Assembly: GCF_025548535.1 (NCBI RefSeq)
Contig: NZ_JAJLQW010000003.1
Location: 124,001-188,000 of the forward strand
DNA from: Undibacterium sp. Jales W-56
GTDB lineage: Bacteria; Pseudomonadota; Gammaproteobacteria; Burkholderiales; Burkholderiaceae_D
Reading direction: 5' to 3'
DNA: 64,000 nt
In this document: positions 2 through 11,639 of the stretch, in pieces
Position numbering within the stretch: the first letter of the stretch is position 1
Layout: every line of letters begins with the position of its first letter
The notes under the pieces: model-generated
What the model was told of the DNA's origin: nothing
Database searches by the model: none
What the model saw: the letters and a program-made list of their open reading frames with translations, nothing else
Made by a program: the position numbers and the translations under genes

Positions 2-1852
2 GTTGTCATGGCAATTCCCATTGATCAAAAAATTGTTGCCGATATGCGCGAGCTATCGGCAATGCAAGTGAGCTTACTCACCAGCAAAAGCGACGGCAAC
101 TGGAAACCCGGCGTATCGACCCTGAACCGCGAGCAAGTTGAACAACTGGCGCAAATAGTTCCGAGAATCAGCGATAAAAGTCAACTCATCGCCGATCTGA
201 AAATCGGCGATGAAGATTACAGTGCGCGCGTCTTAAAGCTCGCTCAAAATGCCGAGCTGATGACCGTGGCGGTGCTGCAGATTTCGGTCAGTGAAGCGAT
301 TGCACCGTATAAAAAATTACAAAGAAATCTCTTGATACTCACGGTATTGGGTGTGTTTATCGCCAGCGTCATCAGCGTACTCACGACAAAAAGAATCACC
401 GGGCCTATGCGTCAATTAGCCGATACCGCCAAACGGTTGGGCGCTGGCGACTATACCGCCGCGATCACGGTAAAGCGGAACGATGAAATCGGGGATCTGG
501 CACAAACCTTCGCAACGATGCGCGACGGCATTGCCAATCGCGAAAAAGAAATCCGACGGCTGGCCTACTGGGACACACTGACCAATTTGCCGAATCGCGC
601 TTTGTTTGTCAGCATGCTGCAAGATGCGATCAAGCAGGCACAGGCAAAAGAACAGGCCTGTTTTGTATTGATGATGGATCTGGATCGTTTTAAGCATGTG
701 AATGACGTGATGGGCCATAGTTTCGGCGACCAATTACTCAAACAGGTAGCCCTCAGGCTCAGCAACGAACTTGGTCAGGGTGCCACCAAGCCGGCACGAC
801 TGGGCGGCGACGAATTCGCTGTTTTATTACCGAATTCTTCGCTGAAAGAAGCTCAAGAGCTTGCTACAAGAATTTTACAATCATTGGAAAAACCGATATC
901 GATTGAAGATCAAACCGTTGACTTGGGCGCTGGCATCGGTATTGCCGGTTTCCCGGACAACGCCAATGACGCAGAGTCTTTGCTGAGCCGCGCTGAAGTC
1001 GCGATGTACGCCGCCAAGCATGCGAACAGCGGCGCAGTCACATATATGCCGGAGATTGACAAAACCAGCCAGCAAAGTTTGTCGCTGCTGAGTGAGTTAC
1101 GAACAGCTTTAGAACAGGAAAATTTTCGCCTGTATGTACAGCCTAAAGTAGCGCTCGACAGTGGCAAGGTGATTGCAGTCGAAGCGCTGATACGCTGGAT
1201 CCATCCTGAGCGCGGCTTTATTTACCCGGACCAGTTTATTCCTTTTGCCGAACAAACCGGCTTCATCCGGCAATTGACGCGCTGGGTATTGAACGAAGCT
1301 GCCCGGGTTTGCAGCAGCTGGATTGCCGATGGTCACCAATTGAAGATGTCGGTCAATCTCTCTACCCGCGATTTGATGGACCAGGATTTACCGAATAAGT
1401 TTGCCGATATCCTGGAACGCCATCACATCACACCTGCCGCATTTTGTCTGGAAATTACCGAGAGCGCGATTATGGATGATCCGGTGCGTGCACAAAATAC
1501 CCTGGAACGGCTGCATGCGATGGGGACAGATTTATCGATCGATGATTTCGGCACCGGCTATTCATCGCTGGCCTATCTGAAAAGTCTGCCGGTTGACGAA
1601 CTCAAAATTGACAAATCATTTGTCCTGAAAATGGAGCAGGATATTGACGACACCAAGATCGTCAAATCGACCATTGATCTTGGTCACAATATGGGACTAC
1701 GGGTCGTCGCCGAAGGGGTAGAAAACAAGGAGGTAATGAGTTTACTCAAGGAGATGGGCTGCGATCAGGCACAAGGCTACTACATCAGTAAACCTATGCC
1801 ATCGGATCAGTTCCTGACATGGTTGCACATCTGGGAATCTGCGCAAAGCTGA
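2..1852 (+). CDS. Membrane GGDEF-EAL c-di-GMP enzyme, 5' end outside window
   Basis: Bifunctional-type c-di-GMP signalling protein. The frame is open to the window edge, so the start lies upstream; the visible N-terminus (residues 1-100 from the ATG at 8) looks like the distal half of a periplasmic cache-like sensor. A membrane segment follows at about 107-127, HAMP at 128-180, GGDEF at about 185-345 with an intact GGDEF signature at 266-270, and EAL at about 358-605 with an intact EAL at 392-394 and the DDFGTGYSS loop. The RxxD inhibitory site is absent upstream of GGDEF. Both active-site signatures are present, so either synthesis or hydrolysis of c-di-GMP is possible; GGDEF domains next to EAL often only bind GTP. 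It converges with the next diguanylate cyclase gene. Confidence 0.92.
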   Translation, partial: VVMAIPIDQKIVADMRELSAMQVSLLTSKSDGNWKPGVSTLNREQVEQLAQIVPRISDKSQLIADLKIGDEDYSARVLKLAQNAELMTVAVLQISVSEAIAPYKKLQRNLLILTVLGVFIASVISVLTTKRITGPMRQLADTAKRLGAGDYTAAITVKRNDEIGDLAQTFATMRDGIANREKEIRRLAYWDTLTNLPNRALFVSMLQDAIKQAQAKEQACFVLMMDLDRFKHVNDVMGHSFGDQLLKQVALRLSNELGQGATKPARLGGDEFAVLLPNSSLKEAQELATRILQSLEKPISIEDQTVDLGAGIGIAGFPDNANDAESLLSRAEVAMYAAKHANSGAVTYMPEIDKTSQQSLSLLSELRTALEQENFRLYVQPKVALDSGKVIAVEALIRWIHPERGFIYPDQFIPFAEQTGFIRQLTRWVLNEAARVCSSWIADGHQLKMSVNLSTRDLMDQDLPNKFADILERHHITPAAFCLEITESAIMDDPVRAQNTLERLHAMGTDLSIDDFGTGYSSLAYLKSLPVDELKIDKSFVLKMEQDIDDTKIVKSTIDLGHNMGLRVVAEGVENKEVMSLLKEMGCDQAQGYYISKPMPSDQFLTWLHIWESAQS

Positions 1853-1922: not shown

Positions 1923-3653
1923 TCAGACTAAATGTATCTGCGTGGTTTTACGATCCTGCTTGCGCTTATACATACGGCTGTCAGCGATCTTAATCAGTCG
2001 CACATAATCTTCGCCATCCTCGGGATAACTGGCCCAGCCTATCGACACCCCGACGCTGACGATCACGTCGTCTAGCGCAATCGGCTCCTCTACCAGACTG
2101 GAAATTTTCTCGACCATGTTATGAATGTCAATGGAGTTCTTGGTATCTTTCAATAACAAAACAAACTCATCGCCACCGTAGCGAGCCACGGTATCGGTGT
2201 CGCGGATTGCCGCTTTCAGACGCGCTGCGATAATCACCAGGGCGCGGTCGCCGGCATCGTGACCATGATTATCGTTGATGTCTTTAAAGCGGTCGAGATC
2301 AACAAACAATAAGGTAAATACCTCTAAACCATAGGCCTTATTGATCGCATTCTTTTGCAGATAATTGATTTGCGCAAACAAAGACTCGCGGTTCGCGACC
2401 TGGGTCAATTTATCGAAACGCAGCTTGTTTTCCATTTCAATCAAGGTTTGCGCCAGGATACCGATTTCATCATCGCGTCGTATATGCAGCTCTGGCAAAG
2501 CCTGCCCATCGCCAAACTTTTCTGCAGCGCTGGTCAATTTACGGATATCGCGAATCACCCGGTCGACTATCGTCAAACCTATGGTCAGGGCAAATACGAC
2601 ACAAGCAACCGCAATCACCAGACTCTGGAAAAATCCCTGATTAATACTGCTCATAAAATCAGAGCGCGGTACCGCGACTACCGTCAACCAATTCAATCCC
2701 TGCCGGACTCCCAAAGATGAAACCGCTACATCTACCGTGCCGATCGCCAGCTGCAACTGCTGAGTAGAAGAAATGGCGTTGTTGTCCTGCAAAATCTTTC
2801 TCTGCCAGTAATCGCTTTTTTTATAAGTTTCGCTAATCAATGGCGACTTCATCTCAGACGCCAACAAGCGTTCAGGTACGCCATTTACCCGCCTCACCGC
2901 CGATTCTTCACCAGACGTAGCGACGATATAACCTTCGCTGTCGATAATATAAGCAACGCTGTTTTTACTGATGTCCAAAGTGCGCAAAAAATCGGATAAG
3001 ACTTTTAAAGTCACATCAGTCGCTACCACGCCAGCCAAGGAGCGGTCTTGCCGATGGATCGCTTTTGCCAGAGTGATCGTGGGTTCAGCAGACGTAAAGT
3101 CATTGTAAATTTTTGACCATATGGGTTGAGTTGCCTGCACAGCAGATTGATACCAAGGACGCTGGCGAGGATCATATTGATCCGTACGGAGCTTGTCGGA
3201 GCGATCGCCAGGCGCTTTTACTTTGTACACCTGACGCAAGGGAGCGTTCGGCTCATGCCAATACAATTCGACAAAATCGTTTCTGATCCTGAACACGCCA
3301 ATCATGCGGCCATCTGCACCGCCGTAATAAACATAATTGTTCACATCCATGAACAAGCCGCTGGCAGCCCATAATTTGTCTTCCAGGTTATGCAGATCGT
3401 CTGAGAAGTTTTGCGTCTGCGGTTGTTTCTTCGGATCCGGCGCAACCGATTCGAGCACAATCAATGCACTATCGAGGTGCCGTTCAGTTGCACTACTGAT
3501 ACGGTTGACCATATCAATCAATATTCTTTGAGTCAAGGTATGAACCGCATCAGTACCTGCCTTCATCGATACCCAGGCAATAGCTACAGATACGCCTATC
3601 ACCAGCACGGTAATTGGTACGACCAGCTCTCGGCGTAATGAGGACTTGCTCAT
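1923..3653 (-). CDS. Diguanylate cyclase with periplasmic dCache sensor and HAMP
   Basis: Predicted inner-membrane diguanylate cyclase making c-di-GMP from two GTP. Order: membrane helix (about 10-28), large periplasmic double-cache sensor (about 35-330), second helix, HAMP, then a C-terminal GGDEF domain with intact GGDEF at 493-497. An RxxD inhibitory site (RDTD) lies five residues upstream, so product feedback inhibition is likely. I use the ATG at 3653 (protein begins MSKSSL); a TTG ten codons upstream at 3683 is possible but has no good ribosome binding site, while the ATG has AAGGA very close to it. The cache domain suggests sensing of a small organic ligand such as an amino acid or carboxylate (family inference). 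Confidence 0.9.
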   Translation of the reverse strand: MSKSSLRRELVVPITVLVIGVSVAIAWVSMKAGTDAVHTLTQRILIDMVNRISSATERHLDSALIVLESVAPDPKKQPQTQNFSDDLHNLEDKLWAASGLFMDVNNYVYYGGADGRMIGVFRIRNDFVELYWHEPNAPLRQVYKVKAPGDRSDKLRTDQYDPRQRPWYQSAVQATQPIWSKIYNDFTSAEPTITLAKAIHRQDRSLAGVVATDVTLKVLSDFLRTLDISKNSVAYIIDSEGYIVATSGEESAVRRVNGVPERLLASEMKSPLISETYKKSDYWQRKILQDNNAISSTQQLQLAIGTVDVAVSSLGVRQGLNWLTVVAVPRSDFMSSINQGFFQSLVIAVACVVFALTIGLTIVDRVIRDIRKLTSAAEKFGDGQALPELHIRRDDEIGILAQTLIEMENKLRFDKLTQVANRESLFAQINYLQKNAINKAYGLEVFTLLFVDLDRFKDINDNHGHDAGDRALVIIAARLKAAIRDTDTVARYGGDEFVLLLKDTKNSIDIHNMVEKISSLVEEPIALDDVIVSVGVSIGWASYPEDGEDYVRLIKIADSRMYKRKQDRKTTQIHLV

Positions 3654-4301
3654 TTCCTTAGGTTCCTGGCGACGATCCGACAAGTGCGTTGAATTACCCT
3701 GCCGCTATCGGTAAAGGTCTTTCACTTTTTTTCTATTGCCCAAAAATTGAATTAGCATCGCTTCGGTCGTGAATTGCTTCAACATGACCCAGTTCGGCAA
3801 CAGCCTCATTTGATATACCTGACTTGATGCGCCAACCTGAGATAGTATCTGAATAGCGTCAAATGTATGCGCACTTAACAATATAAAGAGGCTTGCTTAA
3901 ACATGGTAGGAAATACCATCAGCATATCCAGTATTTTTTGGCAGAGCGTTGTTAAAGTAAATACCAGATGGCGGAGATTCATTTAAAATTTTTTATTGAA
4001 ATCTCATCCTTTATTTGCTTAAACTAAATTCATGTACCCGTACGTTGAGAAAATTACAAAACAAGCGATGACTCATCCCAGATTACTCTTATTCTTAAAT
4101 TGCTTATTGAGTACGGCTGTCCGGGTGCCGCATTGAATGCGGTCGCAGGCAATTTTCCGACTCCGTATCTGATTGATAGCACCGCAACGCATATCAGTCT
4201 AGGCTGACATGACGATTTTTAATCCCAAGAAACGCGGTTTGGTATATGTCACTGCAAGTCGGCAATTAAGTTGATAACTAAGTAAGTACACGGATCATGT
4301 T
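3654..4301. other. Intergenic region, about 650 bases, no gene seen
   Basis: AT-rich stretch between the cache-GGDEF gene and the truncated haemoglobin gene. A sigma-70-like promoter can be read on the plus strand: TTGAAA at 3996-4001, an 18-base spacer and TAAACT at 4020-4025, but it is about 280 bases from the haemoglobin start. A 32-codon open stretch at 4112-4207 reads like protein but has no start; it may be a decayed gene fragment. I see no tRNA or other RNA gene. Confidence 0.4.
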
Positions 4302-7003: not shown

Positions 7004-7032
7004 TTGGCTTGACTATATCAAAACGCTATAAA
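7004..7032 (+). promoter_or_regulatory. Sigma-70-type promoter of the borosin locus
   Basis: TTGGCT (7004-7009), a 17-base spacer and TATAAA (7027-7032) give a near-consensus promoter. Transcription would start near 7039, leaving a leader of about 40 bases before the precursor ATG at 7081. GTGAG at 7071-7075 is the probable ribosome binding site. Confidence 0.65.
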
Positions 7033-7080
7033 ATTCTCTGCTGTAACACATTCATTCTTCCACAACTAAAGTGAGTCATT

Positions 7081-7296
7081 ATGTCTAAATTATTGGATTA
7101 CCTGAATATTCTGGATAAAGATGCAGCAGCGCGTGAAGCGCACAAAAAAGATCCGAAAGGCGCGATGAAAAAATTTGGGTTAAGTGATCATGAACAAGAA
7201 GCGTTTATTTCTGGAGATAAAAAGAGAGTTGCAAAGTTGATTGGTGTTCACGAAGATACTCTTCCTGCTATTCAAATGCCTCAATTTGCTGCTTAA
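7081..7296 (+). CDS. Split borosin RiPP precursor peptide
   Basis: 71-aa peptide. Residues 1-54 match, as I recall it, the borosin-binding leader of SonA from Shewanella oneidensis: MS.L.D at the start, DA at 14-15, a K..P pair at 22-25, Met29, GL at 33-34, and GD at 45-46. These leaders have a fold like the alpha subunit of LigAB dioxygenases and can be annotated that way. The C-terminal tail from Gly55, ending PAIQMPQFAA, is the likely core; SonA has the same total length and is N-methylated close to the equivalent of residues 63-65. Pro62 and Pro67 cannot be N-methylated. The matching methyltransferase is 1.8 kb downstream. The gene is AT-rich, unlike most of the window. Confidence 0.88.
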   Translation: MSKLLDYLNILDKDAAAREAHKKDPKGAMKKFGLSDHEQEAFISGDKKRVAKLIGVHEDTLPAIQMPQFAA

Positions 7297-7311
7297 AGAA
7301 AGCAAAATCTC

Positions 7312-9069
7312 GTGGCGAACTTAAAGTTAAATGCTAATTCTATATTTACTAATTTAATTTTTTTGATTGCCCTCCTTTTTTCATCAATTGCTGCTTCCGA
7401 CGAACCAAATTCAAATAATGAGCTACTTAATTTAGCTACTCAATATTTAGGTTCAGCTCCAGAAAAAGCATTTGATACTTTTGCTAGACTTGAAAAACTG
7501 CGACCTACCTTTACTCCCAAGCAAACTGATAGGTACTATCTTCTCAAAGCTTCATGGCTGGGCTTTAGTGGTATGCATAGAGATCGAATCGAATTGATTC
7601 AATCTTATATTGCACAAGTTTCTGATATAGATAGCAAAGTCAAATTTTTATATGAGTTATCTGACGCATATACAAATCAAGGTGAGTATGAGAACGCTTT
7701 GAGTGCAATGAATCAAAGTATATCTCTGTTACCCCAAATATCGGATATGCAAGCAAAGCTAAGTATGTTGCAATCTGCAGCTACTTTGTTTAAGTCTTTG
7801 CATGCCTATGATGATGCTATTTTGTATGCTCAACGTATGTATCTAATAGATCCAAATAGATCTAACAAATTGGCGACATGTTTAGGGAGTAGTAATGAAA
7901 TTGAAATTAACTTTTTGAGGGGATCCCGTAATTTAGCGAAAGCTGCTTTACCTATGGCGATTCAAGTTTGTCAGGAAAATGGAATTGCAGCAATTGCCCT
8001 TATGTTGAAAGCACTAGATGCCGTCGACTCAGTAAATTCTGGATTAACTGAGCAAGGTTTGAAAACAGGATTGACAGTATTAACTGAATTTGCAAAAACA
8101 AACGAAAATTCTGATTATGTAATTCAGTTAAAGGAAGGTATTGCCCGCGCATATCTGAAATTGAGCAATCTAAATCAAGCAGAACATTTTGCTGATCAAG
8201 CTTATCAACAGGCGAAATCAAGAAATCTTGTTCAATTATTAGAAAAAACTAGCAGAACCATGGCAGCAATCAAACGCGCACAAGGTCAATTCTCCAGCGC
8301 ACTCGAATACTACGACACCAGCCTCGCGCTGAAAGACAAAATTCTCGACGATCAATTGCATAAAAATCTCGCTTATCAGCGCGTCAAATACGATAGCCAG
8401 GACAAGGCAAACCAGCTGAGTTTGCTCGAACAAAAAAACAAAACCCTGGCAATTGCGCGTCAGCTGGAGAAGCGCAATAATCAAAACCTGATTTTGCTGG
8501 TGACGCTGATCTCGGTCATGTTACTGATCCTGACTGCATGGCTGATCCGCATCTGGCAGCAAAAAAATCAATTCCGTGAGACCGCGCAAATTGATGGACT
8601 GACGCAGATCAGCAATCGCGCTCACTTTATTGCCGGCGGTGTGCAGGCGATGCAGTCGAATCATGCGGCGGTTAGTGTGATCTTGTTCGATATGGATTTT
8701 TTTAAACGTATCAACGACAGCTTCGGCCATGCGGTCGGTGATTGGGTGTTGCGCACTGTGGCAGAGAAAATCAAAACGCTGCTGGGAAAAAAAGACTTGT
8801 TCGGCCGTCTCGGCGGCGAAGAATTCGTGATCTGCGCACCGGGCGCTAGTGAAGCAGAGACGGTAGCGCTGGCAGAGCGCTGCCGTGTCGCCATCATGGA
8901 GATCGATACCAATCCCAGCGGCTATCGCTTCCCGATTTCTGCAAGCTTCGGTGTCGCCACCCGCGCCGCACATGCCTCTACCAGTTTTGAAGATATGCTG
9001 GCAGCCGCTGATAAAGCGCTGTACGTATCAAAAACAGATGGACGCAATCGCGTTTCGGCTTTTCAATAA
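7312..9069 (+). CDS. TPR-sensor diguanylate cyclase inside the borosin locus
   Basis: 585-aa membrane diguanylate cyclase. It has a signal sequence (about 1-30, ending near SSIAAS), a TPR-rich periplasmic region (about 35-370), a coiled-coil-like stretch, one membrane helix (about 393-416), and a C-terminal GGDEF domain with an active GGEEF at 501-505. The RxxD inhibitory site is degenerate (GKKD). Start is GTG at 7312, 15 bases after the precursor stop, so the two genes are probably co-transcribed. Base composition changes sharply near 8255 (about residue 315): AT-rich before, GC-rich after. The sensor half therefore looks to have a different origin from the catalytic half. Ligand is unknown; the context suggests a link to the borosin peptide. 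Confidence 0.9.
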   Translation: MANLKLNANSIFTNLIFLIALLFSSIAASDEPNSNNELLNLATQYLGSAPEKAFDTFARLEKLRPTFTPKQTDRYYLLKASWLGFSGMHRDRIELIQSYIAQVSDIDSKVKFLYELSDAYTNQGEYENALSAMNQSISLLPQISDMQAKLSMLQSAATLFKSLHAYDDAILYAQRMYLIDPNRSNKLATCLGSSNEIEINFLRGSRNLAKAALPMAIQVCQENGIAAIALMLKALDAVDSVNSGLTEQGLKTGLTVLTEFAKTNENSDYVIQLKEGIARAYLKLSNLNQAEHFADQAYQQAKSRNLVQLLEKTSRTMAAIKRAQGQFSSALEYYDTSLALKDKILDDQLHKNLAYQRVKYDSQDKANQLSLLEQKNKTLAIARQLEKRNNQNLILLVTLISVMLLILTAWLIRIWQQKNQFRETAQIDGLTQISNRAHFIAGGVQAMQSNHAAVSVILFDMDFFKRINDSFGHAVGDWVLRTVAEKIKTLLGKKDLFGRLGGEEFVICAPGASEAETVALAERCRVAIMEIDTNPSGYRFPISASFGVATRAAHASTSFEDMLAAADKALYVSKTDGRNRVSAFQ

Positions 9070-9089
9070 CACCCACATCAAAGTAATCA

Positions 9090-9887
9090 ATGCCAAATAC
9101 AAAAAAAGGAAAATTAGTCTGCGTCGGCACCGGCATGCGCATGGCTGGACAATTGACGCCTATCGCCCAGAGTTATATCGAAACCTCGGATGTCGTGGTA
9201 GCGGCGGTGCCGAATATTTTCACGCGCAAATGGTTGCAGGATATCGCTAAAGAATATGTGTGCCTGCTCGGCTATTACGCCGATTGCGATGAGGCGGGTA
9301 AAGACCGGCGCGATACTTATCGCCGTATGGCGGACACCATTCTGGCCGAGCTGCGCGCGGGTAAAAACGTGTGTGCGGCATTTTATGGGCATCCCGGTAT
9401 TTTTGCCTGTATCTCGCACATGGCGATTGCCGACGCGCGGGCTGAGGGCTTCAGTGCCGAGATGGAGCCGGGGATTTCTGCGGAAGATTGCCTGGTCGCC
9501 GACCTGGGAATCGATCCGGGCAAACACGGCATGCAATCGATGGAGACGACGCAGTTCATGATCTACCAGCGCAGCATCGATCCTAGCGCCTTGCTGATCC
9601 TGTGGCAGCCGGGTATCGCCGGGGACTTGAGCCTGAAGCGTTTTGATACCAATGCCGAACGTTTGCAATTATTGGTAAATAAGCTGGCACGCGATTATCC
9701 GCTGGATCACGAAGTGATTTTGTATGAGGCGGCCACGCATCCGCTGGAACAAACCCGCATGGATCGCTTGCGCCTGGGCGACTTGCCGCAAGCCAATCTG
9801 AAGCAGATCACGACCCTGGTGATTCCGCCTGCCAGAGCGATGAAAATCGATCAGGCGATGATGGATTTGCTGAACGCGGCAGCTTAG
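9090..9887 (+). CDS. Split borosin alpha-N-methyltransferase (SonM/OphMA type)
   Basis: 265-aa S-adenosylmethionine-dependent methyltransferase with the tetrapyrrole-methylase fold. It begins VCVGTGMRMAGQ (10-21) and carries the borosin-specific segments RRDTY (73-77), FYGHPGIFAC (98-107), MEPGISAE and ADLGIDPG, which match SonM as I recall it. Arg73, Tyr77 and Tyr99 line up with catalytic residues Arg72, Tyr76 and Tyr98 described for OphMA. It should methylate backbone amides of the precursor encoded at 7081-7296. Automatic annotation would probably call it a generic SAM-dependent or precorrin methylase. It starts 20 bases after the diguanylate cyclase stop; no strong ribosome binding site is visible. 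Confidence 0.92.
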   Translation: MPNTKKGKLVCVGTGMRMAGQLTPIAQSYIETSDVVVAAVPNIFTRKWLQDIAKEYVCLLGYYADCDEAGKDRRDTYRRMADTILAELRAGKNVCAAFYGHPGIFACISHMAIADARAEGFSAEMEPGISAEDCLVADLGIDPGKHGMQSMETTQFMIYQRSIDPSALLILWQPGIAGDLSLKRFDTNAERLQLLVNKLARDYPLDHEVILYEAATHPLEQTRMDRLRLGDLPQANLKQITTLVIPPARAMKIDQAMMDLLNAAA

Positions 9888-10013: not shown

Positions 10014-11639
10014 TTGTCTCACTCTGCCGATTTGCCTCAAACTCAGTTCAATAACGCCTTGGCTATGTTGCATCAGCAGACCGATGCCATGATTGAGAGC
10101 CAGCCCGCCAGGACGATCGAGGTCTTAATGGAGGCGATCCGGACGGCGGATCGGGACGCCGACCCCAAGCTGCTGGGGGATTTGTACTGCAAAGTCGGCA
10201 ATTGCCGCATCATGCTCAACGACCCGGTCGCCGTGCGCGACTTTGAGGCCGCGCTCGAATTCGCTGAAATCAGCAACAATGCATCGTTAAAAGCCGACGT
10301 GTTTCATGGCCTGGCGCGGACTTTTGTCACCTTCGGCGATACCAACAGCGCCCTGCAATATGGTGAAAAAGCCTTGCTGATCGGGCGCGAAGTCAATAAT
10401 CCCAAAAAATTTGCCCAGATCCTGATCACGCTCGGCCTGATTTTTACTTATACCCAGCAGTTTGACCGCGGAATCGCCATGTATGCGGAGGCGCTGGAGT
10501 TATGCCAGCTGCATAACGATCAGGATGCGATGGCAAGGGTTAAAAATAATTGGGCCGATAATCTGGTCATGTATTTTGAGGCGCTGCACGAAGCCAATGC
10601 CTCGCCCAAAGTGGAGATGCTGGACGATTCGATCCGCTTTGCCCGCGAATCCCTGGTGCATGCGCAGAGCGGCTCCTTGCTCAGGACGCAGTTGCTGGCG
10701 ACCGAGACGCTCGCCCATGCTTTGGAGGCGCGCGGTTTCTATAGCGTCGCCCTGGAAGAGCTGGCAGTCGGCCTGGCCAGCGCCTCTGGACATGGTTTTG
10801 CCAAAGAAGAACTGGATATCAAAGTCCGGATCGGTGCCTTGCTATTGCATATGGGGCAGATCGCCGAGGCGATTCAGTGCATGCTGGAAGCACGCGACTC
10901 GGCTTTGCGTATCGGCAATTACTCTTACATGGGCGATCTGCTAAAGATTTTATCGACCGCTTATGAAGCCAATCAGGAATTTGCCGCGGCGCTCAAAGCG
11001 TATAAGGAATTTCATAGCGTAACGCTGAAATCGCGCGATCAGCGCGCCCAGATCAGTGCACAGATTTTTGCTGCCAAAATGGATTTGGAGCGCGCGCAAA
11101 AAGAAGCGAATGTACATAAAACGCGGGTCGATCAGCTGGAAGACTTTAACCGCACCCTGCGGGTCCAGGTACATGAAGACACCTTGACCGGATTACCGAA
11201 TCGCCGCGCCCTCGAAGAAAAAATGCATCAACACCTGACCGGCAGGGTGAGTAATATTGCGTTCGCCATGTGCGATATCGATTTCTTTAAAAAGGTCAAC
11301 GATGATTATTCGCATCTGATCGGCGACGAAGTATTGCGCGAAGTCGGTCATTTGATACAATCCTGCCTGCGCTCCGGCGATCTGGCGGCCCGCATTGGCG
11401 GTGAAGAGTTCGCGCTGGTGCTGGATAGAACGGCCAAGGCAATGGAAGCTTGCGAACGTATCCGTAAAGCGATCGAGGCGAATGACTGGCAACGTATCGC
11501 GGCCGGTTTGCATATCACGATGAGTTTTGGTGTCACGGATATTCAACAAGGGGACGACCTCAAAGCGATGATGGGTCGTGCTGACGGCGCACTGTATCGT
11601 GCTAAGCACAATGGACGTAATCGCGTAGAGAAGGTCTAG
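10014..11639 (+). CDS. Soluble TPR-GGDEF diguanylate cyclase
   Basis: 541-aa cytoplasmic protein without signal peptide or membrane helix. TPR repeats fill about 25-360, a coiled coil spans about 360-390, and the GGDEF domain has an active GGEEF at 462-466 with an RxxD inhibitory site (RSGD) five residues upstream. The start is TTG at 10014, with TGGAG at 10001-10005 as ribosome binding site. It lies 126 bases after the borosin methyltransferase on the same strand, and is the second TPR-GGDEF protein at this locus, so it may belong to the same pathway or be an old tandem relative. TPRs suggest activation by a protein partner. Confidence 0.88.
   Translation: MSHSADLPQTQFNNALAMLHQQTDAMIESQPARTIEVLMEAIRTADRDADPKLLGDLYCKVGNCRIMLNDPVAVRDFEAALEFAEISNNASLKADVFHGLARTFVTFGDTNSALQYGEKALLIGREVNNPKKFAQILITLGLIFTYTQQFDRGIAMYAEALELCQLHNDQDAMARVKNNWADNLVMYFEALHEANASPKVEMLDDSIRFARESLVHAQSGSLLRTQLLATETLAHALEARGFYSVALEELAVGLASASGHGFAKEELDIKVRIGALLLHMGQIAEAIQCMLEARDSALRIGNYSYMGDLLKILSTAYEANQEFAAALKAYKEFHSVTLKSRDQRAQISAQIFAAKMDLERAQKEANVHKTRVDQLEDFNRTLRVQVHEDTLTGLPNRRALEEKMHQHLTGRVSNIAFAMCDIDFFKKVNDDYSHLIGDEVLREVGHLIQSCLRSGDLAARIGGEEFALVLDRTAKAMEACERIRKAIEANDWQRIAAGLHITMSFGVTDIQQGDDLKAMMGRADGALYRAKHNGRNRVEKV

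What the first reader, a model, noticed from the sequence alone, without database searches (positions are those of the whole stretch)
7004..9887. Split borosin RiPP locus in a betaproteobacterium
A 71-residue peptide with a SonA-like leader (7081-7296) and a SonM/OphMA-type methyltransferase (9090-9887) lie in one probable transcription unit. The methyltransferase keeps the catalytic Arg/Tyr set of borosin enzymes (RRDTY, FYGHPG). Borosins are peptides with N-methylated backbone amides. Established knowledge: the split form was described in Shewanella. Routine annotation would hide both genes as LigA-like and SAM-methylase proteins.
Basis: partly seen in the sequence, partly recalled or inferred. 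Interest (0 to 1): 0.93.

Follow-up and report, generated by a model that had tools for sequence, protein, structure and literature searches.

The report
Borosin peptide wired to c-di-GMP enzyme
This bacterium carries three adjacent genes, for a small peptide, an enzyme predicted to methylate the peptide's backbone, and a membrane enzyme predicted to make the messenger c-di-GMP; nearly all related loci examined keep the three together, so the finished peptide is likely a signal that the membrane enzyme would sense.

Summary
The peptide (7081-7296) has a SonA-type leader; the methyltransferase (9090-9887) is 52% identical to SonM with catalytic Tyr/Arg/Tyr intact: a split borosin pair in Undibacterium. 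The gene between them (7312-9069) is no bystander: it encodes a signal-like segment, a TPR solenoid predicted to be periplasmic, one membrane segment and a GGEEF cyclase domain. Such a cyclase is adjacent to, or fused with, the methyltransferase in 107 of 112 loci parsed, including a locus with a 99% identical SonM; 17 are fused. The peptide gene precedes the cyclase gene wherever both were found. In Shewanella, loci with 97-99% identical methyltransferase and 98-99% identical cyclase domain differ in sensor (47-50% identity) and in peptide core, which switch together: the look of a peptide-receptor specificity cassette, though core type and sensor do not match in every lineage. Best reading: a methylated-peptide signal read by its own diguanylate cyclase. 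Methylation, export, binding and c-di-GMP output are untested. A GGDEF domain is already drawn among borosin architectures (PMC11395268, Figure 1 legend); key borosin papers were not available, so the partnership is partly known and the sensing idea may be too.

The parts
7081..7296 (+). Split-borosin precursor, 71 aa: leader (borosin binding domain, residues 1-55) plus short C-terminal stretch from residue 56 (VHEDTLPAIQMPQFAA) that holds the core
   Evidence: SonA-like leader, five predicted helices; 88 listed sequences (query included) with conserved leader and variable C-terminus
7312..9069 (+). TPR-sensor diguanylate cyclase, 585 aa, GTG start: signal-like segment 6-24, TPR solenoid 35-323, long helix 327-426 carrying the membrane segment 394-412, GGEEF domain 425-580
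7312..8250 (+). AT-rich sensor-coding part of the cyclase gene (G+C 0.38 for the whole sensor part against 0.54-0.55 for the GGDEF and methyltransferase parts)
9090..9887 (+). Borosin alpha-N-methyltransferase, SonM homologue, 265 aa

Best explanation
The three genes encode a split-borosin precursor peptide, a borosin methyltransferase and a TPR-GGDEF protein with one predicted membrane segment, and they likely work as one signalling module in which the backbone-methylated peptide would be released and sensed by the predicted periplasmic TPR domain, which would set the cyclase's output of c-di-GMP. Shown by sequence: the gene content, its conservation or fusion in 107 of 112 loci, intact catalytic motifs, the conserved layout of the cyclase, and in a set of Shewanella loci the joint switching of peptide core and sensor. 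Inferred: methylation of this core, removal of the leader, export, binding to the sensor, and a change in c-di-GMP. The leader would dock on the methyltransferase while the core would carry the receptor specificity.
Against: Core and sensor are neighbours on the DNA, so one recombination moves both even without binding. Core type does not always go with sensor type: L141, L142, L138 and L175 have NHGN-type cores like L126 but sensors only 0.33-0.38 identical to it, and second-type sensors are only 0.64-0.93 identical among themselves (between types 0.44-0.51). The leader also tracks the sensor in Shewanella (0.59). In the beta group the core-sensor term is not significant (0.14, p 0.13), though leader-sensor is (0.35, p 0.006); in the fused group it is negative (-0.28), the core tracks GGDEF instead (0.34, p 0.008) and is not variable (mean identity 0.61). 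Among 32 loci clustered, no exporter or protease family recurs at the window's kind of locus. 3 of 112 loci have the pair without a cyclase within 3 kb (L044, L046, L048). The window's I-site is lost (GKKD; RxxD is kept in 70 of 107). A TPR fold match shows no ligand. The partial correlations are not corrected for phylogeny.
Confidence: 0.57

Rival explanations
1. The cyclase regulates the pathway rather than reading its product: the sensor detects some other envelope cue, and c-di-GMP or contact with the cyclase gates methylation or export of a borosin that acts outside the cell.
For: The GGDEF-methyltransferase fusion places the enzyme next to the c-di-GMP source; in the fused group the core tracks GGDEF and not the sensor; many cyclases sense non-peptide cues (general knowledge).
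Against: Does not predict that core and sensor switch together in Shewanella while methyltransferase and GGDEF stay constant.
Confidence: 0.21
2. The peptide is an antagonistic (bacteriocin-like) product and the sensor part is its matched immunity or detection partner; cassette exchange reflects a toxin-immunity arms race.
For: A variable core with a variable partner and AT-rich exchanged DNA also fit such systems.
Against: 102 of 107 partner proteins keep a GG[DE]EF motif by pattern search, which immunity would not need; no further gene family recurs in the window's kind of neighbourhood among the 32 loci clustered.
Confidence: 0.1
3. The core-sensor association is physical linkage only: recombination inside the operon swaps neighbouring sequence, without ligand-receptor matching.
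For: The core starts within about 60 bp of the cyclase start (coordinates); the leader tracks the sensor too; core type and sensor type do not match in L138, L141, L142, L175.
Against: The exchanged segments differ far more than the flanks and recur as types across two methyltransferase clades; 14 other orthologous cyclases of the same two genomes show no such island.
Confidence: 0.12

Closest known systems
Type IV split borosin SonM-SonA of Shewanella oneidensis (PMC8429565)
   Same: Methyltransferase 52% identical with catalytic Tyr/Arg/Tyr kept; precursor with five-helix leader and short C-terminal core. A Shewanella locus with a 99% identical SonM also has the cyclase just after the precursor (L126).
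   Different: In the window the cyclase gene lies between precursor and methyltransferase. The main text of PMC8429565 does not hold the words GGDEF, diguanylate, cyclase or TPR; its supplements could not be read.
Borosin architecture with a GGDEF domain, as drawn in Figure 1 of PMC11395268
   Same: The legend defines 'GGDEF, GGDEF-sequence-containing domain' among borosin architectures, so a GGDEF-bearing borosin is already on record; it probably corresponds to the fused form seen here.
   Different: Only the legend, outline, introduction, discussion and word passages of that paper were seen, not the figure: which type it is, and whether the TPR sensor or separate cyclase genes are noted, I cannot tell. 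That text does not hold the words diguanylate, c-di-GMP or signal.
Rap/PlcR-type (RRNPP) TPR pheromone receptors
   Different: Those receptors are cytoplasmic and bind unmodified peptides taken up by the cell (recalled); this one is predicted to be periplasmic and coupled to GGDEF.
ComX/ComP- and agr-type polymorphic peptide-receptor loci (recalled, not searched)
   Same: Peptide and the sensing part of a membrane receptor vary together between conserved flanks.
   Different: Their receptors are histidine kinases of Gram-positive bacteria; here the output domain is a diguanylate cyclase and the peptide is a predicted borosin.
Fungal fused borosins (OphMA)
   Same: Related methyltransferase (145-166 bits).
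   Different: In fungi the precursor is fused to the methyltransferase; here the partner fused in 17 loci is the cyclase.

Membership tests
Type IV (split) borosin | Discrete methyltransferase related to SonM/OphMA | tested here: met
   SonM E 2e-85, fungal borosin enzymes E 1e-47 to 3e-41
Type IV (split) borosin | Catalytic residues Y58, R67, Y71 (SonM numbering; passage of PMC8429565 seen) | tested here: met
   Y63, R73, Y77 in the window; 111 of 111 aligned sequences (window and SonM included)
Type IV (split) borosin | Separate precursor with five-helix borosin binding domain | tested here: met
   SonA E 4.7e-5; five helices 3-54; Foldseek rows 1-29 all SonA (E 0.045 to 0.45)
Type IV (split) borosin | Alpha-N-methylation of the core | not testable with these tools
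   Needs co-expression and mass spectrometry
Precorrin/tetrapyrrole methylase (as function) | Reaches a curated precorrin-methylase cut-off | tested here: not met
   22.6 and 22.1 bits against cut-offs 163.25 and 391
LigAB dioxygenase LigA subunit | Reaches the Pfam LigA cut-off | tested here: not met
   21.2 bits against 25.3
Diguanylate cyclase | GGDEF domain with intact GG[DE]EF motif | tested here: met
   PF00990 135 bits, GGEEF; motif found in 102 of 107 related proteins
Diguanylate cyclase | Makes c-di-GMP | not testable with these tools
   Biochemical assay needed
Polymorphic peptide signal-receptor pair | Peptide core and sensing domain adjacent and varying together while other parts stay constant | tested here: inconclusive
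   Met in Shewanella as a group and in two clades, with exceptions L138, L141, L142, L175; beta group not significant for the core (p 0.13), leader p 0.006; fused group not met
Polymorphic peptide signal-receptor pair | Peptide secreted and bound by the sensor | not testable with these tools
   No binding or secretion data; no recurrent exporter found in the clustering

The most novel reading that the evidence does not exclude
Proteobacterial split borosins are backbone-methylated peptide pheromones: each operon carries its own transmembrane TPR-GGDEF receptor, core and sensor are exchanged together as pherotype cassettes, and the signal enters the cell directly as c-di-GMP; this would give the function of the founding SonM-SonA system as well.
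Probability: 0.46. Interest if true: 0.95.

Novelty: new variant of a known kind. Interest (0 to 1): 0.78.

Why it matters
Split borosins have been studied mainly as methylation chemistry; in 2021 none of the type IV pathways was tied to a final natural product (PMC8429565, passage), and by its title a 2023 paper (Crone et al., seen only as a reference) reports a first bacterial one. A conserved, sometimes fused diguanylate cyclase, and sensor types that switch with the peptide core, give these peptides a concrete, testable role: a ribosomal, backbone-methylated signal feeding straight into c-di-GMP. If true it would be a new class of peptide communication in Gram-negative bacteria, with a ready laboratory model (Shewanella oneidensis) and natural specificity types to compare.

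Tried and rejected
Rejected: precorrin methylase and LigA subunit. Rejected: the GGDEF gene as a chance neighbour. Promoter and terminator scans gave fewer sites than shuffles and settle nothing. Neighbour-gene clustering of 32 loci, families in at least 3 genera: besides the cyclase/methyltransferase group, a GNAT gene (8 loci, 7 genera) and an aspartyl-protease gene (3 loci) recur, both in gammaproteobacterial loci; other recurring families are an antisense frame and unrelated neighbours. The Foldseek list shown for the cyclase (50 rows) held no TPR-only structure; the TPR matches came from the second look.

Literature: a claim of mine changed on checking. Text searches had listed no paper joining borosins with GGDEF, but ranks papers without borosin first and shows 15 of 2,382, so it shows no absence. 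Looking inside PMC11395268 I found GGDEF in its Figure 1 legend on borosin architectures. So the GGDEF link, at least as an architecture, is in print; I lowered the interest score for that, and the odds slightly for the exceptions. In the main texts of PMC8429565, PMC11285071, PMC10885120, PMC9505594 and PMC12710340 the words GGDEF and diguanylate do not occur; the other papers's list were not looked into. Not held: a DOI guessed for Imani 2022, and by the identifiers found later Crone 2023, Lee 2024, Imani 2022, Cho 2022. Seen: passages and one section of PMC8429565, passages of PMC11285071, outline, introduction, discussion, legends and passages of PMC11395268, passages of PMC10885120, PMC9505594, PMC12710340; of all others listings or starts of abstracts.

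Shewanella: 43 stretches fetched from the 77 match rows, chosen by methyltransferase match. One search used 73 of the 90 loci with precursor and cyclase (22 beta, 36 Shewanella, 15 fused); left out: 7 duplicates, L146 (broken), L174 and L183 (short cyclase frames), L027 and L034, four Ferrimonas loci and L029 (no group). The 17 loci without a detected SonA-like precursor were not in these tests. In one search the Shewanella core boundary was set too early; one search is the corrected version and is quoted for the correlations. In one search the pattern search missed the motif of L028, which one search shows. The control keeps the 14 of 19 compared pairs with GGDEF identity above 0.8; that uses 29 rows = 28 genes of the 40 stretches fetched, those with a long enough N-terminal part.
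Full report
Observation. The window holds a 71-aa ORF at 7081-7296 and a 265-aa ORF at 9090-9887, as described. The second is a borosin methyltransferase: SonM 289 bits (E 2e-85), fungal borosin enzymes 145-166 bits, 52% identity to SonM over 251 residues with the catalytic Tyr, Arg and Tyr in place. Precorrin methylase models stay far below their cut-offs. The first has a SonA leader (E 4.7e-5), a five-helix predicted fold with a low-confidence tail, and SonA chains as Foldseek rows 1-29, at E 0.045 to 0.45 because the domain is small. The 88 sequences listed for it (query included) share the leader and differ in the last residues. Each gene occurs once in the own genome. The own genus is Undibacterium, because a genome told as 'same genus' holds a contig of the same length as the named U. 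pigrum contig.

Conservation. Of 52 loci (window plus 51 found by methyltransferase in GTDB representative genomes), 30 have a GGDEF gene adjacent on the same strand and 17 have it fused to the methyltransferase. With 60 more stretches from Undibacterium and Shewanella genomes, 107 of 112 loci have it; the rest are two contig ends and three loci with a precursor but no cyclase within 3 kb. Seven of the 112 are repeats, so 100 of 105. The fused form is seen in Luteimonas, Thermomonas, Dokdonella, other Lysobacterales records and bins with other labels; 16 of the 17 frames are 801-888 aa and L027 is 662 aa. Pfam on three of them gives TPR, GGDEF, TP_methylase in that order, the TPR match being under its cut-off in two. 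The locus with a 99% identical SonM has methyltransferase, precursor, TPR-GGDEF, with the cyclase frame starting 6 bp after the precursor. So the founding split-borosin type has the same partner. Within Undibacterium the methyltransferase is patchy (20 of 43 genomes, two of these with a partial match only), and in the order sample only the own genome and one other of the same genus gave a strong match among 399; two weak matches of 20-21 bits are not counted.

Order. Wherever a precursor and a cyclase were both detected (90 of 112 loci), a precursor comes just before the cyclase in gene order, although the methyltransferase may lie on either side. The gap is -20 to 60 bp in 75 of 90; the exceptions are overlaps up to 106 bp that hang on the start codon (10), gaps of 72 and 106 bp (2) and three loci with short or broken cyclase frames (L027, L183, L146). 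In the 17 loci without a detected SonA-like precursor, 16 have another small ORF before or overlapping the cyclase start, about half of them starting like MSNIIQLLERMGQDASLQ, many with a later hydrophobic-PAE or PAD motif; L020 showed none. Some gammaproteobacterial loci also carry a GNAT acetyltransferase (8 of 32 loci clustered) or a pepsin-like protease (3 of 32). From recall, a pepsin homologue (shewasin A) has been reported to process a borosin precursor; I could not check this.

Specificity cassette. In part of Shewanella the gene parts evolve in blocks. L126 and L127 have methyltransferases 99% and GGDEF domains 98% identical, but sensors 47% identical and cores QAFLLVNHGNN against QSYLIISCGIGD. 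L129 and L130 repeat this (97%, 99%, 50%; QTFILVNHGNN against QSYLVISHGNGE). Across the two methyltransferase clades, L126 and L129 share sensor (91%) and core type although their methyltransferases are 90% identical. Sensors are 0.90-0.99 identical within the first type (4 loci), 0.64-0.93 within the second (5 loci) and 0.44-0.51 between them. By blastn the flanks of the island are 91-96% identical; it begins at the leader/core junction in L129/L130 and a few residues into the core in L126/L127, and sensor identity recovers near the end of the TPR region. L127 and L131 also keep an upstream precursor with an LLVNHGN core, which looks like a relic of the other type. Exceptions matter: L138, L141, L142 and L175 carry NHGN-type cores with sensors only 0.33-0.38 identical to L126's. 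As a control, 14 orthologous cyclases from the genomes of L126 and L127 have sensors nearly as conserved as their GGDEF domains (mean difference -0.039, sd 0.073, minimum -0.143; the borosin cyclase -0.499). Over 36 Shewanella loci the core tracks the sensor after GGDEF, methyltransferase and leader are taken out (0.46, p 0.001), and does not track GGDEF (0.03) or methyltransferase (-0.08); the leader tracks methyltransferase (0.43) and sensor (0.59).

The window's allele. The precursor and sensor-coding part are AT-rich (0.38) against 0.54-0.55 for GGDEF and methyltransferase. Among cyclases of the own genome the window's is the extreme: -0.162 against -0.012 +/- 0.027, minimum -0.069, over 29 rows that are 28 genes. 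A similar drop is seen in Ferrimonas, Neiella, Rheinheimera and some Shewanella (not L019), and hardly in the fused group. It is consistent with imported or fast-evolving specificity DNA. In the beta group single pairs show the block pattern (L154/L157 GGDEF 0.99, sensor 0.63; L154/L161 sensor 0.85, core 0.94, GGDEF 0.84), but the group-wide core-sensor term is not significant (0.14, p 0.13).

Against. Physical linkage can carry core and sensor together without binding. The fused group shows no core-sensor signal (-0.28), little core variation, and a core-GGDEF term instead (0.34, p 0.008). No exporter family recurs in the clustering. The partial correlations treat loci as exchangeable and are not corrected for phylogeny. 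All biochemical steps are inferred.

Mechanism. Most likely the leader docks the precursor on the methyltransferase, the core is backbone-methylated, the leader is removed by an unlinked or, in some gammaproteobacteria, perhaps a linked protease, the product leaves the cytoplasm, and the cyclase's TPR domain binds it and changes c-di-GMP synthesis. The window's lost I-site would remove product inhibition of that cyclase.

Novelty. The pair is a new member of a known family. A GGDEF domain is already drawn in a published figure of borosin architectures (legend seen, PMC11395268), so the association is not new as such. The wider partnership with separate TPR-cyclase genes, the constant place of the precursor before the sensor, and the joint switching of core and sensor were not met in the texts that I could search or read, but Imani 2022, Cho 2022, Crone 2023 and Lee 2024 are not held, so I make no claim of priority.

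Noticed in passing
window 10014-11639: A second TPR-GGDEF gene follows the methyltransferase; it has no AT-rich sensor part (0.54 against 0.53) and is not the conserved partner.
   Followed up: partly
window 8-1852 and 1923-3683: Two more GGDEF genes close by; 43 GGDEF places in the own genome.
   Followed up: no
L127 and L131, upstream precursor: A second precursor with the other core type and a longer tail, apparently a relic of an earlier allele.
   Followed up: partly
L021-L026, L037, L052, L143-L145, L163-L165: Other small ORFs in front of the cyclase, about half starting like MSNIIQLLERMGQDASLQ, with a hydrophobic-PAE/PAD motif; some gammaproteobacterial loci also have a GNAT or a pepsin-like aspartyl protease gene.
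   Followed up: partly
L141, L142: The cyclase motif is degenerate (GGQQF, GGAEF) while precursor and methyltransferase remain.
   Followed up: no
L146: The module is fragmented in this Undibacterium genome (cyclase frame of 103 aa, shortened precursor frame).
   Followed up: no
L044, L046, L048: Borosin-type pairs without a GGDEF gene within 3 kb; L046 has two methyltransferases in a row.
   Followed up: no
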